Below are positions 54,101 to 62,719 of a stretch of DNA of 64,000 bases, in pieces; position 1 is the stretch's first letter; the number at the start of each line of letters is the position of its first letter. Source of the DNA: Chiridota heheva (lineage: Eukaryota; Echinodermata; Holothuroidea; Apodida; Chiridotidae); assembly GCA_020152595.1 (NCBI GenBank), contig JAIGNY010001459.1:2660001-2724000 (forward strand), read 5' to 3'. Both the position numbers and the translations under genes were made by a program. The notes under the pieces were generated by a model that saw only the letters and a list, made by a program, of their open reading frames with translations, was not told the origin of the DNA and did no database searches.

Positions 54101-57100
54101 GTAGGCCCACAGGTCGAGGCCCAGCCAATGACAGGAGGCCAGGAGGCAAATCGGGATATGCAAATGACAGAAGGGGTGGAAATATGGACCATCGCATGAA
54201 CAAGAAAGAAAAAGATGTGTATAGATTGGATCATATGGAATTATCCAATCCTAATTCTGTTGTGGTAAGTTCTCTTAACCATATGTTTGCATGGATGTTA
54301 AACAAAATATCTGAGCAAGTTCATTTCTAGTCTTTTAGAAGTGTATACTTTGGCATCAACTTGGATGCATTATTCACCATTTTTGTACTGTTCTTCACAG
54401 GATGCCTTGCATAAATCTATGCCCCCCTCGTTACGAAAGCCACATGCGATACATGGCAAACCAACACCCATCCACCTCCTGGACCCAGCTGCCCGAGAGA
54501 AGGAGAGACAGAAACTAGAAGAAGAGAGAAAGAAGGAGAGGATGAGAAGCTATGACCTCAATAACATTGCAAGTGAGTAATGTGTGGGCTTTAAAGCAGG
54601 GCTGGAGGCATTTTTATTTATTTTTTAATGAAAATGCTAAGGTAGCACACCAGGTCAAAACACAAGTATAGGCAACAAGATACTATTTACGAGAAGTCCC
54701 AAAAGCCAATCAATGGTTTACAGCAGCTTATAAATCATGGCATGAAATAATCCTTTACAATGTCATTGTGCTGAGAGAAGATGATGACACACCCGAGTTC
54801 CTGTTAATAGAATCTTCCTTAACTAAATTGCCAAGGAGGAATGTGCTATTGCTTTAGCACATGACATGTAAACCTCAGCAAAGAAAAGTTGATCAAACCA
54901 ATACTAACGCCCTCAAATTTCAATTCCTAGTGTGAGCAATTGTGCGTGGCAACCCATTAGAGGATAACGTATCACTATGCATCAAAAACACATCACCACA
55001 CTTCAAACACAAATGTGTTTTCAAAAATGTCAATAAGAAATGAGTACCAGTTTAGCTGGGGAGTTAACTTGTGATGGACTGTTGTCCCATCCAGGGGGAG
55101 TCAAAAGTATGCTTATCTGCCTGGCACTGTGGTAACCGGGTAGAACCACCGGCTCTATAAGTCCTCAAGGATTAAAGGGATTTGCTTTTTTGGTTCTGAT
55201 GCTATCTGCATCAGGAACCTATCCAGTCTGTTTCTCATGCGTGTGTATGTATGTCTGTGTGTTATGCCTAGCTTGTAAACACGATATCTCAAGAACAGTG
55301 TTGAAAGATATGCCCTATTGTTTTTGGTGATGATGTCATTCATATTAATGAGTGAGCGGGGATTTATGTAGACATTTTAAAATGCTCATATTTTAACAAC
55401 CTTTTGTCTGTTTTGTTTCATATTTGGTATAATAATGTTGTTAGCTAGTGTCCACATGCTCTTGGTATTAAAACGTTAAATCATATTAATATGCATAGTG
55501 GGCGCGGCTTAATGTGGTTTTGCCAAATAGAGCATCTACAAACGAAATCTCCAGAACAACACATTGGATTTATGTGATATATGGTACACTGGTAGTTTAT
55601 GGTCCGCAAACATGCCCTATTAATTTTAGTGATGATGTCATGCATATTAATGAGTGGGTGGGGCTTAATGTAAAAATTTAGAAATGATCACATTTTAACA
55701 ACTACAAGTGTTTAGTTTCATATTTGGTCTAGTTACGATGTTAACTGGTGTGTACATGCTCATAGTAAACATGCATAGTGGGCGGGCTTAATGTGATTTT
55801 GCTGAAAAGAGCTTGTAAACATGATATTTAAAGAAAGATAAACTGGATTCATGTCATATGTGGTAAACATAGCACATGGTCTGTATATGCACCCTATTGG
55901 TTTTGGTGGTGATGCCATGCATATCAATGAGTAGGCGGGGATTAATCTAAAAGCTTGTAATGCTCATATTTTAACAAATACATGTGTTTTGAATTATACC
56001 TAGCATATGTATGTTTTTAGCTAGTGTATACATATTTATGGTATAACATTTTTGAATATCATTAATATACATAATGGGTGGAGCTAAATATGGTTTTGCT
56101 GAAAAGAGCTTGTAAACACAGTAACCGCAGTACAGTACATTGGATACAGGTTATATGTGGTACATTGTCCATTTGTGTGCCCTATTGTTTTTGGTGGTGA
56201 TGTCATGCATAGTATTTATGGGGGGTGGCTTAGGTTAATATAAATGATATTGAAAAAGTGATAAATTTACAGCAACCATATGTCTGTTTGCATCATACTT
56301 GCATCTCATTTGTCAGTTATTGTGTACATGCTTATGTTGACATCAGGTTCTATCACTAATATGCATGCCTTAATGTAAAAATGCTCCAAAAAACTTGTAA
56401 GCACATCACACACATGTCATATGTTGTACACCGATGAGTTATGGTCCATATACTAGTATGTGACCTATTGTATTGGTAGTGATATAATGTAGGTGGGGCA
56501 TTATGTAAAATTCTTTAAACGGTGATAAATGTGCAACCATATGCATGCTTTGCATCGTGCATCATACTTGTACTGATGTCAAGTTCACTTAATTGATATG
56601 CATGGCGAGCATGGCTTATGAATGTTAATTAGCATATTTTATGATATGCAATTTGCCAGTTATTATAAAACTTCAGAATCAACAAACAATGACAGGATGC
56701 ATCGGAACCTCTAAACATTCTAGTTTTCTGGTTGAACTTTTTAAGACCATGCAGTGTTTTGACATGAAATGCCCGTAAGGGTTATCTGACATGGCCTGTG
56801 TGATTTCTTGTAGGAAATATGCCGTTATTTGGCATGGCCTGTGTGATGCATTAGTATACCCTTTGTCTGTTGTATGTGAATAGATTTTCCTTGATTGATG
56901 TGTCAAATGATGTTACACGGATTCTGAGCAGTTTGTCTGCAGGGTTGACATCTATCCATCACCCATGACTGATGACACATACAATATAATTAGTGCTCTC
57001 ATGACATGTCGATTTTCGCGATACCTCTTTTCCCACGACATGAAATATGCCTCTCGCGACATATCGTGATACCAAAAACTAATACTCAACTAAGAAATTT

Positions 57101-60100
57101 TTGCACAACTAGGCTAGGCTACTTCGTACGTTACAATTCTAACGTTACGGTATTATGCCATTAAAGATGTGCAAAAATAGCATGAAACATAAAATTAAAA
57201 AGAAAATAATTAAAAATCGTGCTCTGTCACCCCACACTGGCACTTCTAATATAAGCTGGCAAAAAGAACGAAAAATTAGCCCAGAACATACCTCTCACTT
57301 CAATGATTTATGGTCACGTTGACTGATTTACCAAACATGCGTGATGAACATAATAGTTACGCGATCATGTCGTCTGCTAGATATGCAAATCATTTTTTCA
57401 TGCGTTCTTCATAAAAGAAGTAACGTGTGATATTAGCAATTTGTGTCGTGAGTCAGTTTTCTTGAAAGTATTGTGATATATTGGTATATCGCAATACTTT
57501 TCAAGAAAACTGACTGATGACACATATCTATTTTTCTCCACGATAATCGATACGTTATAGAGCCATGTCATGACAGCTCTAAATAAAATATGAATTTATA
57601 AAATACAAGGTACATAATAATCAGTATCCTTCATCCAGCCTTGTATAAAACTGACATTCACCGTCAAAGGCCCACTTTATACCTTATATGATTCTCATAC
57701 TTGAATCCTCTTGTGTGTTTTAGGTGTTGTCATGGTGGACAATATCCCAGAGGTGATCATGGAGGACCCAGAGGACCTGCTGACCCCTGGAGAGGGTTTC
57801 CAAGAGGTCAAGTCAAAGAGGACACAGAGGCAGGAAGCTAAGAGGATGGACACTGCATCAATAGTGGAGGTAAGAATCATCCCAGGGTGACATTAGCGCT
57901 TTGCTTTAGTTCAATAGGCAAGCATTTTCTTCTTTGAAAGAGGGCAATGATAGGGGTAAAGGTGAAGAGTGTATTCAATGATCTTCAGTTATGAAGATAT
58001 TTATAATTTCATCTTGTATGAAAGAGGACTTCCAAAGAAACAAAATGGTGAAGAAAGCCTTTAAAAATCTTATTCCGTTAAGGAGATATTCAAGTATAAA
58101 GTTTGGTATCATTTGTGTAGAAATTACTGACATCAGACTAGTTGTAACGTCATAGCCTCAGATTCCTCAAAGTTTTTATGTATTCTAGCATTTCTTGTCC
58201 TGCGATTTTGTGGCTGAAAAACCATTGGGTATATCAGAAAAGTAGTAAAACAGAATCTTGTAAGGGTAATCATAATTTGCCACCTGAAGAAAGTTTGAGG
58301 AAAAATAATTAAAATAGTGGAAAGTTCAATCAATTTGCTTTAAAATATATGAAGAATTGTTAAGAATGTTAGGCTGAGGGACCAGCCTTTCATAGTAAAC
58401 AGACTTACTACACCAGTTATTTCTACACAGATAAGACAGAGCTTTAAACTTGAATATCTCCTTAACTAACGGAATAAGATTTTTGTATGCTTTTTTCAGC
58501 ATTCTGTTTATTTTGGAGTCCTCTTTCATATAAGATGAACTTGCTTGACCCTGAACTAATCCTTTTAAGTTTAAAACTGTCTGATGTTAAAATGACTGAA
58601 ATCACACTAGAGGTGACATCACAGCCTCACATTCCTTAGGTCTTTGAAATGTTCTTTCACATATCTTGAAAATACTGGATATGTGATGAGATTAGTAAAA
58701 CAAGTCTAGTGAAGACTGTAAATGAGATTTACCAGGTCATACAAAATGTGGCATCTCCTAAATAGAGTAAGAAGACATTTCTTAATATTTTGAGAAGGAC
58801 ATCTGATTCTTTTTTTCTGGATACCCAGCCATGTTGGCATTCCTGGTAATGATAGGGCTGATGCAGTCACTAAGCTTGCCCTCAACCTCCCCACCACCCC
58901 ATTTTCCAAAACCCATTCTGACATCAAACCACTTATCACTTCCCTTGTTCGTGACCGCTGACAAACCTCATGGGACTCCCAAATTGATGACAAACTCCAC
59001 GTCATCCAGCCCACCATTCTGATCAAACCCACTATCAACGACCTCTCTCTATCGACAACGTTCATATTACCCGTCTTTAATTAGGTCACACCCACCTCGC
59101 TCACTCCCACCTCCTTATTGGCTCCCCCCAACCCCTCTGCAACAATTGCCATTGCACCCTCACAGTCAATCATGCTCTCCTTGCTTGCCCCCTGTACAAC
59201 CTTCCCAGAGTTTCCCTTGCTCCCCACAACTCAATTGCCGAGTTCTTCCAGAAAAACCCTCCGGATAAAATTATCTCCTTCATGATGCTTCCCTCTACTA
59301 CCATATTTCGTCCTCCTCTTCCACCTCTTCCAAAGAACCTGAGAGAAATGTTGGCTTAATGAACTAAATGGGACCATGCAGTGTTTTGTAACATGGAATA
59401 CACCTGAGAGGCATGGCCTGTGTGATTTCTTATTTGCTGGGAAGAATTCCCATTAGGTTGATGTGTCAAATGATGTTACACGGATTCTGAGCAGTTTGTC
59501 TGCAGGGTTGACATCTATCCATCACCCATGACTGATGACACATACAATATAAAAGGAATGTGATTTAAGAAGCCTTTAAAAAAAAAAAAAGAAGTGTATC
59601 CATTATCCTTCAGTGGACAAAATCAATGCTCATGGGGGTAAAGTTTGGAGTGGCTATCCCCTGCAGTAGTACGATAAAACTAAAAACAACATTTGTGTGA
59701 TTTATTAGAAAGTTAAGAAAATAAGGAGAGGTATAATGGATGTTAATCATATCCTACAAATTGTCACAGATGACATTTTGTTGTCACAGATGACATTTTG
59801 CTTTTGCGAATCATAATCTATTACAATTTTTCATTTCAACTATTGATTGGGAATGGATTTTATTGTGTTAAATATCACATCTTTGGTCAAATGTCAATCT
59901 TATGGCAAGTCACATTTTGTATTAACTAACATCTTGTGTCAATTGTGCACCGTGTGTCACCAAATATCACATCTTGGGTCAAATGTGCACCGTGTGTCAC
60001 CAAATATCACATCTTGTGTCAATTGTGCACCGTGTGTCACCAAGTCACATTTTGTATTAACTCACATCTTGTGTCAATTGTGCACCTTGTGTCACCAAAT

Positions 60101-62324: not shown

Positions 62325-62636
62325 GTACCTAGGATTTCTGCGAGCACAAAAATATTGCTGCCTATTTTCCTAGTAGCCTTATATGTATAGTATAGGGTAA
62401 AGCGCCCTAAACCTTTTGGCACTGAGAATGTGGTCTCTTCCCCATGTGCATGTGTGACGAAGATCACAACTTGATCATGTAACAAATTAATGTTTAAAGA
62501 GTAAGGGTGTTAATGTTGAGTCGTGATTTGGTTTCTGCATGCAAATTAGGAGAATGTACCCCATTTGGTGCGAAACTATGCTACCCAATAAATGGATTAA
62601 TGAATACAAGTGTGAGAAAAGTCCCTTTAGCATCAC

Positions 62637-62719
62637 AAGTGTCAAATGATGTTACACGGATTCCGAGCAGTTTGTCTGCAGGGTTGACATCTATCCATCA
62701 CCCATGACTGATGACACAT
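62637..62719 (+). ncRNA. Candidate intronic box C/D snoRNA, copy 3 (intron 18)
   Basis: Box C ATGATGT (62646-62652) and box D CTGA (62708-62711) are kept. The stem is shortened to GTGTCA (62639-62644) with TGACAC (62712-62717), and the D' position reads CCGA instead of CTGA. The interior is otherwise the same as copies 1 and 2, so this may be a weaker or decaying paralogue. Confidence 0.5.

What the first reader, a model, noticed from the sequence alone, without database searches (positions are those of the whole stretch)
56898..62719. Three near-identical 83-nt box C/D snoRNA-like sequences in three introns of PRRC2
Seen: copies at 56898-56980, 59461-59543 and 62637-62719, each in a different intron on the host strand, with a terminal stem closing directly on box C (ATGATGT) and box D (CTGA) plus a D' box. 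Copies 1 and 2 look identical; copy 3 has lost one stem pair and its D' T. The flanking introns are unrelated, so selection or recent copying holds the unit. Established: vertebrate PRRC2B introns host a duplicated C/D snoRNA (SNORD62A/B). Inference: an ancient host-snoRNA association, or an independent one.
Basis: partly seen in the sequence, partly recalled or inferred. Interest (0 to 1): 0.85.

Follow-up and report, generated by a model that had tools for sequence, protein, structure and literature searches.

The report
Orphan U83 snoRNA copies in PRRC2
Three introns of the PRRC2 gene of an unnamed animal (and a fourth just outside the window) each carry a copy of U83, a known small guide RNA whose target is not known; the RNA is of an ordinary kind, but finding it in a different host gene shows which part of it evolution protects.

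Summary
Three 83-nt units lie at the stated places; copies 1 and 2 are identical, copy 3 has two substitutions. The host is PRRC2 (BAT2_N domain). In the 1.1-Gb genome four copies were found, all on one strand of one contig; the fourth is in the next PRRC2 intron, outside the window. That speaks against a MITE. Three compensatory pair changes against the Rfam consensus, and 14 of 16 identical bases before box D, support membership. RF00137 is best read as the original U83 of DDX39B/BAT1 introns (human SNORD117 by recall), an orphan; it is not the RPL3-intron SNORD83A/B, whose likely counterparts sit in this genome's RPL3 introns. U83 thus has different hosts in different lineages and multiplied inside one gene. 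No rRNA target clearly passes shuffle controls. The best candidate is 18S helix 34, near the yeast snR4 site: 8 of 100 and 27 of 300 shuffles do as well. Expression could not be tested.

The parts
56898..56980 (+). U83 (RF00137) box C/D snoRNA, copy 1, with 8-nt terminal stem
   Evidence: 56902-56977, 52.8 bits, cut-off 35
56907..56913 (+). box C ATGATGT of copy 1
   Evidence: sequence; aligned to RF00137
56924..56927 (+). box D' CTGA of copy 1
   Evidence: sequence
56928..56940 (+). D'-C' hairpin GCAG-TTTGT-CTGC; two of its four pairs are compensatory changes against the RF00137 consensus
   Evidence: read off the alignment
56943..56949 (+). degenerate C' box GGTTGAC (my assignment)
   Evidence: sequence; family consensus has guGauGAC there
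56954..56968 (+). conserved element upstream of box D (ATCCATCACCCATGA); 14 of the last 16 bases before box D equal the RF00137 consensus
   Evidence: alignment
56969..56972 (+). box D CTGA of copy 1
   Evidence: sequence
59461..59543 (+). U83 copy 2, identical to copy 1
   Evidence: 59465-59540, 52.8 bits
62637..62719 (+). U83 copy 3; two substitutions (second stem pair, D' T to C)
   Evidence: 62641-62716, 51.1 bits
21037..21165 (+). stretch holding the start of the host protein, PRRC2 N-terminus (BAT2_N)
   Evidence: PF07001, 48.7 bits, E 1.6e-12
57724..57869 (+). host exon between copies 1 and 2
   Evidence: AG/GT borders read
60376..60604 (+). host exon between copies 2 and 3
   Evidence: AG/GT borders read
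61813..62324 (+). second host exon between copies 2 and 3; copy 3 lies in the intron after it
   Evidence: AG/GT borders read; ORF

Best explanation
The units are four genes (three in the window) for U83, a box C/D snoRNA of Rfam family RF00137, lying in introns of PRRC2. They are most likely processed from spliced, debranched introns: the terminal stem brings boxes C and D together, the core C/D proteins bind there, and exonucleases trim to the stem. The finished particle is presumably a guide RNP that uses the conserved stretch before box D; the half between box C and D' is not conserved. The copies arose by copying of intron segments within the host gene, after which the snoRNA stayed alike while the flanks decayed. 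The host differs from the mammalian one (DDX39B/BAT1). Shown: sequence, family match, copies found in the genome, host, conserved element. Inferred: expression, processing, guide activity, mode of copying. Target unknown.
For: Rfam: 3 of 3 window copies and the fourth copy over the gathering score (52.8, 52.8, 51.1 and 52.0 against 35). Whole genome: 4 DNA matches and 4 family matches, all on one contig and one strand, within 10 kb. Against the consensus, all 8 model pairs are standard in the three window copies, 3 of them by changes on both sides (alignments). 80 of 83 positions invariant in four copies while flanks mostly do not align; boxes C and D unchanged in 4 of 4. Host domain BAT2_N.
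Against: No small-RNA data; processing is not shown. The copies lie far from the next 3' splice site that I read (743, 832 and 1452 nt for copies 1-3, about 4.5 kb for copy 4), unlike the 70-80 nt usual in mammals (recalled). Single-sequence folds are no more stable than shuffles (z -0.09 to -1.05 in 4 of 4), which does not count for much with C/D snoRNAs (recalled), and copy 3's minimum-energy fold lacks the closed terminal stem. Recent copying or gene conversion could explain the likeness without selection. That RF00137 is the DDX39B-intron RNA rests on literature and exclusion; no human sequence was compared. Genome counts are lower bounds by the tool's own words.
Confidence: 0.88

Rival explanations
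1. A transposable element or MITE that happens to have snoRNA-like boxes and landed in several introns.
For: Near-identical copies in several introns; a MITE-like inverted repeat (about 56990-57580, by eye) lies directly beside copy 1.
Against: Only 4 copies found in 1.1 Gb, all in one gene and one orientation; family match with compensatory pairs.
Confidence: 0.02
2. An orthologue of SNORD62, the C/D snoRNA of vertebrate PRRC2B introns, kept in the same host since early animals.
Against: No RF00153 row at E up to 5 or 2, none in the genome (weak negative); strong match to another family.
Confidence: 0.02
3. Dead or drifting copies: duplicated recently or homogenised by gene conversion, without function of their own.
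For: Copies 1 and 2 identical over 95 nt including short flanks; shared upstream flank at 73%.
Against: Flanks have diverged strongly while the unit has not; boxes C and D intact in 4 of 4; the pre-D element is conserved against the Rfam consensus.
Confidence: 0.08
4. Besides or instead of a trans target, the intronic copies act in cis on PRRC2 splicing by pairing with neighbouring intron sequence.
For: Such action is claimed for intronic snoRNAs in mammals (PMC10324135, only title and start of abstract seen); several introns of one gene carry the unit.
Against: Pairing within the host was not tested. The exact complement of the pre-D element (one base free) occurs once outside the snoRNAs, on another contig, against 3 control hits.
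Confidence: 0.05

Closest known systems
U83 / Rfam RF00137 SNORD83 (intron 5 of BAT1/DDX39B in human, mouse and pig, PMC1654159, passage seen; that it is human SNORD117 is recalled)
   Same: Length, boxes, terminal stem, D'-C' hairpin, 14 of 16 bases before box D (against the Rfam consensus).
   Different: Host PRRC2 instead of DDX39B; four copies found; longer terminal stem; different sequence and 4 nt fewer between box C and D'.
SNORD83A/B (human RPL3 introns 5 and 7, PMC3412847 passage; human U83a/b listed beside snR52 and chicken 18S-A429 in a table of PMC2653536, passage)
   Same: The name; both are intronic C/D snoRNAs.
   Different: Different guide and family models (RF01179, RF00593). 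Two likely counterparts sit in this genome's RPL3 introns, L027 4074-4153 and 9016-9095, 44.1 and 48.4 bits to RF01179, under its cut-off of 50.
SNORD62A/B (RF00153)
   Different: No family match here.
Yeast snR4 (guides 18S ac4C1280 in helix 34; PMC5464676, passages seen)
   Same: The best-scoring 18S complementarity of the U83 pre-D element overlaps the region where snR4 GS2 pairs.
   Different: Pairing not clearly beyond shuffles; no second antisense element found (251 of 500 shuffles as good).

Membership tests
RF00137 / U83 | Score above the curated gathering cut-off | tested here: met
   4 of 4 copies, 51.1-52.8 bits against 35
RF00137 / U83 | Conserved element upstream of box D | tested here: met
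   14 of 16 bases identical to the consensus
RF00137 / U83 | Terminal stem and D'-C' hairpin | tested here: met
   8 of 8 model pairs kept in the three window copies, three by compensatory change
RF00137 / U83 | No rRNA complementarity (orphan) | tested here: inconclusive
   best site 18S helix 34, not clearly beyond shuffles; of the own 28S only the 5' part was available
RF00137 / U83 | Host gene DDX39B/BAT1 (mammals; not a sequence criterion of the family) | tested here: not met
   the four copies found lie in PRRC2
Intronic box C/D snoRNA | Stable RNA bound by fibrillarin, NOP56/58 and the 15.5K protein | not testable with these tools
   no expression data
SNORD62 (RF00153) | Match to the family model | tested here: not met
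   as a weak genome-wide negative
SNORD83A/B (snR52-type 18S guide) | Guide CUACUGCCUUCCUU before box D | tested here: not met
   absent from the copies; present in the RPL3-intron RNAs
snR4-like acetylation guide | Two antisense elements on either side of the helix 34 cytidine | tested here: not met
   no second element beyond shuffles (251 of 500); first element 27 of 300 shuffles as good

The most novel reading that the evidence does not exclude
U83 is the animal RNA that binds 18S helix 34 where yeast snR4 does, either methylating a G 17 nt upstream of the acetylated cytidine or helping its acetylation, for which the passages I saw name no human guide of its own. Its pre-D element makes 12 contiguous pairs (three G-U) with this species' 18S (positions 1278-1289 of the 18S in L024), covering the two bases that I place, from recalled yeast numbering, as the snR55 and snR40 methylation sites. 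The same place is the best joint site for this RNA and the Rfam consensus. It is weak: 9 of 200 shuffles on 18S alone and 17 of 200 on the 5.5-kb pre-rRNA stretch, 8 of 100 and 27 of 300 (joint) do as well; the Rfam consensus alone does not stand out on 18S (114 of 200) or on the three RNAs together (75 of 100); and no second antisense element was found.
Probability: 0.06. Interest if true: 0.8.

Novelty: new member of a known kind. Interest (0 to 1): 0.36.

Why it matters
The paper that described U83 already reported no rRNA complementarity (title seen), and a 2011 survey still lists SNORD83, SNORD84 and SNORD117 without target (PMC3349704, figure legend seen). A copy in another animal lineage shows which part selection keeps: the stretch before box D and the D'-C' hairpin, not the D' guide. 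That narrows target searches to one element with two differences in 16 bases. It also gives a clean case of a snoRNA found in a different host gene and multiplied inside it.

Tried and rejected
SNORD62 orthology: no family match. MITE: four copies found. SNORD83A/B of RPL3: different guide; likely counterparts sit elsewhere in this genome. miRNA-type rows at 57438-57528 fall on an inverted repeat beside copy 1, all under cut-off. D' guide against rRNA: nothing beyond shuffles (45 to 196 of 200 in seven targets; 48 of 100). Second antisense element for helix 34: none. Genome pattern of the guide complement: one hit outside the snoRNAs, at C2738 in AT-rich sequence, control 3. A 5.8S site for the pre-D element scores well on its own (3 of 200 shuffles; third best by energy; Rfam consensus 28 of 200): ten contiguous pairs, but the base that would be modified is mismatched, so I set it aside. 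The other targets for the pre-D element: own 28S 5' part 129 of 200, spacer stretch 162, foreign 28S 190, foreign 18S 70. Pfam on seven of the eight host ORFs gave nothing and on the eighth one row under cut-off; the two further ORFs gave nothing above cut-off. The RPLP0 (PF00466) search did not complete.

Literature: eight searches; their listings, in several cases only the top rows of many hits, held no title on U83 in PRRC2 introns; only one search used PRRC2 as a term (15 of 1,473 papers listed). I saw listings and passages, no paper whole. The U83 paper itself (Jady and Kiss 2000) is not held. The sponge paper (PMC3412847, passages) reports a 'SNORD83' in RPP0 introns with unknown target, and PMC8704543 a single-copy SNORD83 in a tunicate; I could not tell which of the two U83 kinds these are, so I claim no first.
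Full report
The three units are real. At 56898-56980, 59461-59543 and 62637-62719 the + strand carries 83-nt sequences; the first two are identical, the third differs at two positions. Copies 1 and 2 agree over 95 nt.

Rfam names them. cmscan of the whole window returned three rows above cut-off, all RF00137 'SNORD83', one per unit: 52.8, 52.8 and 51.1 bits against 35. The permissive scans of 56700-63000 (E up to 5) and 20500-64000 (E up to 2) listed no other snoRNA family on the units except a weak SNORD104 row partly overlapping copy 2 (19.4 bits, cut-off 40). 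In the alignments the four pairs of the terminal stem and the four of the D'-C' hairpin in the model are all kept; three of the eight by changes on both sides. Of the 16 bases before box D, 14 equal the family consensus. The stretch between box C and D' is not conserved and is 4 nt shorter.

The name needs care. Two different RNAs are called U83. One is SNORD83A/B in human RPL3 introns (PMC3412847, passage), listed in a chicken survey beside snR52 and 18S-A429 (PMC2653536, table passage). [quoted passage not shown] The RF00137 consensus has not the guide of the first kind. The first kind is also likely present in this genome: RPL3 introns hold two RNAs with CUACUGCCUUCCUU before box D (44.1 and 48.4 bits to RF01179, cut-off 50) and a weaker third place at L028 551-636. 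So RF00137 is best taken as the BAT1-type U83. That human SNORD117 is this RNA is recalled; its 6p21 location was seen in PMC8629011. A survey lists SNORD83, SNORD84 and SNORD117 among C/D snoRNAs of unknown target (PMC3349704).

Copy number and host. In the window's assembly (1.1 Gb, 3744 contigs) the family search scored 60 of 132938 first-look candidates and returned 4 matches (none of its 14 prokaryote controls rang, as expected); the 95-nt DNA query returned 4 of 4 candidates. These counts are lower bounds by the tool's words. All lie within 10 kb on contig C1455, + strand. The fourth (L005 3473-3548, 52.0 bits) lies after an exon that I read at L005 1672-2910. The gene begins with a BAT2_N domain at 21037-21165 (E 1.6e-12), so it is PRRC2. 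The other host ORFs scanned (8, 2) gave no Pfam family above cut-off.

How the copies arose. In the four-way alignment 80 of 83 positions are invariant while the flanks mostly do not align. Copies 1 and 2 share a further block upstream (73% over 79 columns), and by eye short stretches just upstream look related in the others. This fits copying of intron segments inside the gene, followed by decay of everything but the snoRNA. Selection and gene conversion cannot be told apart with one genome. Exons lie between the copies, so it is not a simple tandem array.

Target. With the own 18S, 5.8S and the 5' part of 28S the pre-D element scores best on 18S helix 34 (12 contiguous pairs, three G-U). 9 of 200 shuffles on 18S alone (17 of 200 on the 5.5-kb pre-rRNA stretch) and 8 of 100 by duplex energy over the three RNAs do as well. 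The foreign 18S has the same place as its best, but with a shorter match (70 of 200). For the Rfam consensus element this site is second on the own 18S and second by energy over the three RNAs, with no excess over shuffles (114 of 200 on 18S; 75 of 100). Scored jointly the site is the best, with 27 of 300 column shuffles as good. The place overlaps where yeast snR4 GS2 pairs (PMC5464676, passage: overlapping the snR40 and snR55 sites; their exact positions are recalled). A second antisense element, which snR4 has, was not found (251 of 500). A 5.8S site also scores (3 of 200 on 5.8S alone) but is mismatched at the base to be modified. I treat helix 34 as a lead, not a result. The D' guide shows nothing.

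Against the reading. There are no expression data. The copies lie 743 to about 4500 nt from the next 3' splice site that I read, farther than is usual in mammals (recalled). Single-sequence folds are not more stable than shuffles in 4 of 4 copies, and copy 3 does not close its terminal stem in the best fold.

Verdict. A known orphan snoRNA family, in a host gene other than the mammalian one and in four copies found, in an animal that I cannot name. The SNORD62 analogy fails; the snoRNA reading and the host hold. The value lies in the conserved element and in the host change.

Noticed in passing
56990-57580: MITE-like inverted repeat, by eye (ends GCTCTCATGACATG / CATGTCATGACAGCTC), directly after copy 1, with an inner hairpin at 57438-57528 that draws sub-cut-off miRNA rows; its 57511-57526 equals 16 nt at the snoRNA 3' end, perhaps by chance.
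   Followed up: partly
59866-60290 and 62890-63650: Related minisatellites (units 40 and 19 nt) in the introns of copies 2 and 3; the 19-nt unit shares CAAGTGTCA with the altered 5' stem of copy 3.
   Followed up: no
L027 4074-4153, 9016-9095; L028 551-636: RPL3 introns carry two or three C/D snoRNAs with the snR52/SNORD83A-type guide, under Rfam cut-off.
   Followed up: partly
L028 2615-2744 and 4565-4694: Weak SNORA13-like H/ACA rows in or after RPL3 (34.1 and 28.5 bits, cut-off 53).
   Followed up: no
L026 (contig C2964): A complete rDNA unit, 76-88% identical to the host's in the longer aligned stretches, on a 10.9-kb contig: probably another organism in the assembly.
   Followed up: partly
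52740-53127 and 58876-59255: A dispersed repeat of about 380 nt, 84-94% alike in pieces, 6.1 kb apart; the second copy lies in the intron of copy 2, upstream of it.
   Followed up: no
58005-58542: Long inverted repeat (76- and 53-nt arms, 85-86% complementary) in the intron of copy 2.
   Followed up: no
5009-6265: Minus-strand reverse-transcriptase-like ORFs, apparently a retroelement remnant (by eye).
   Followed up: no
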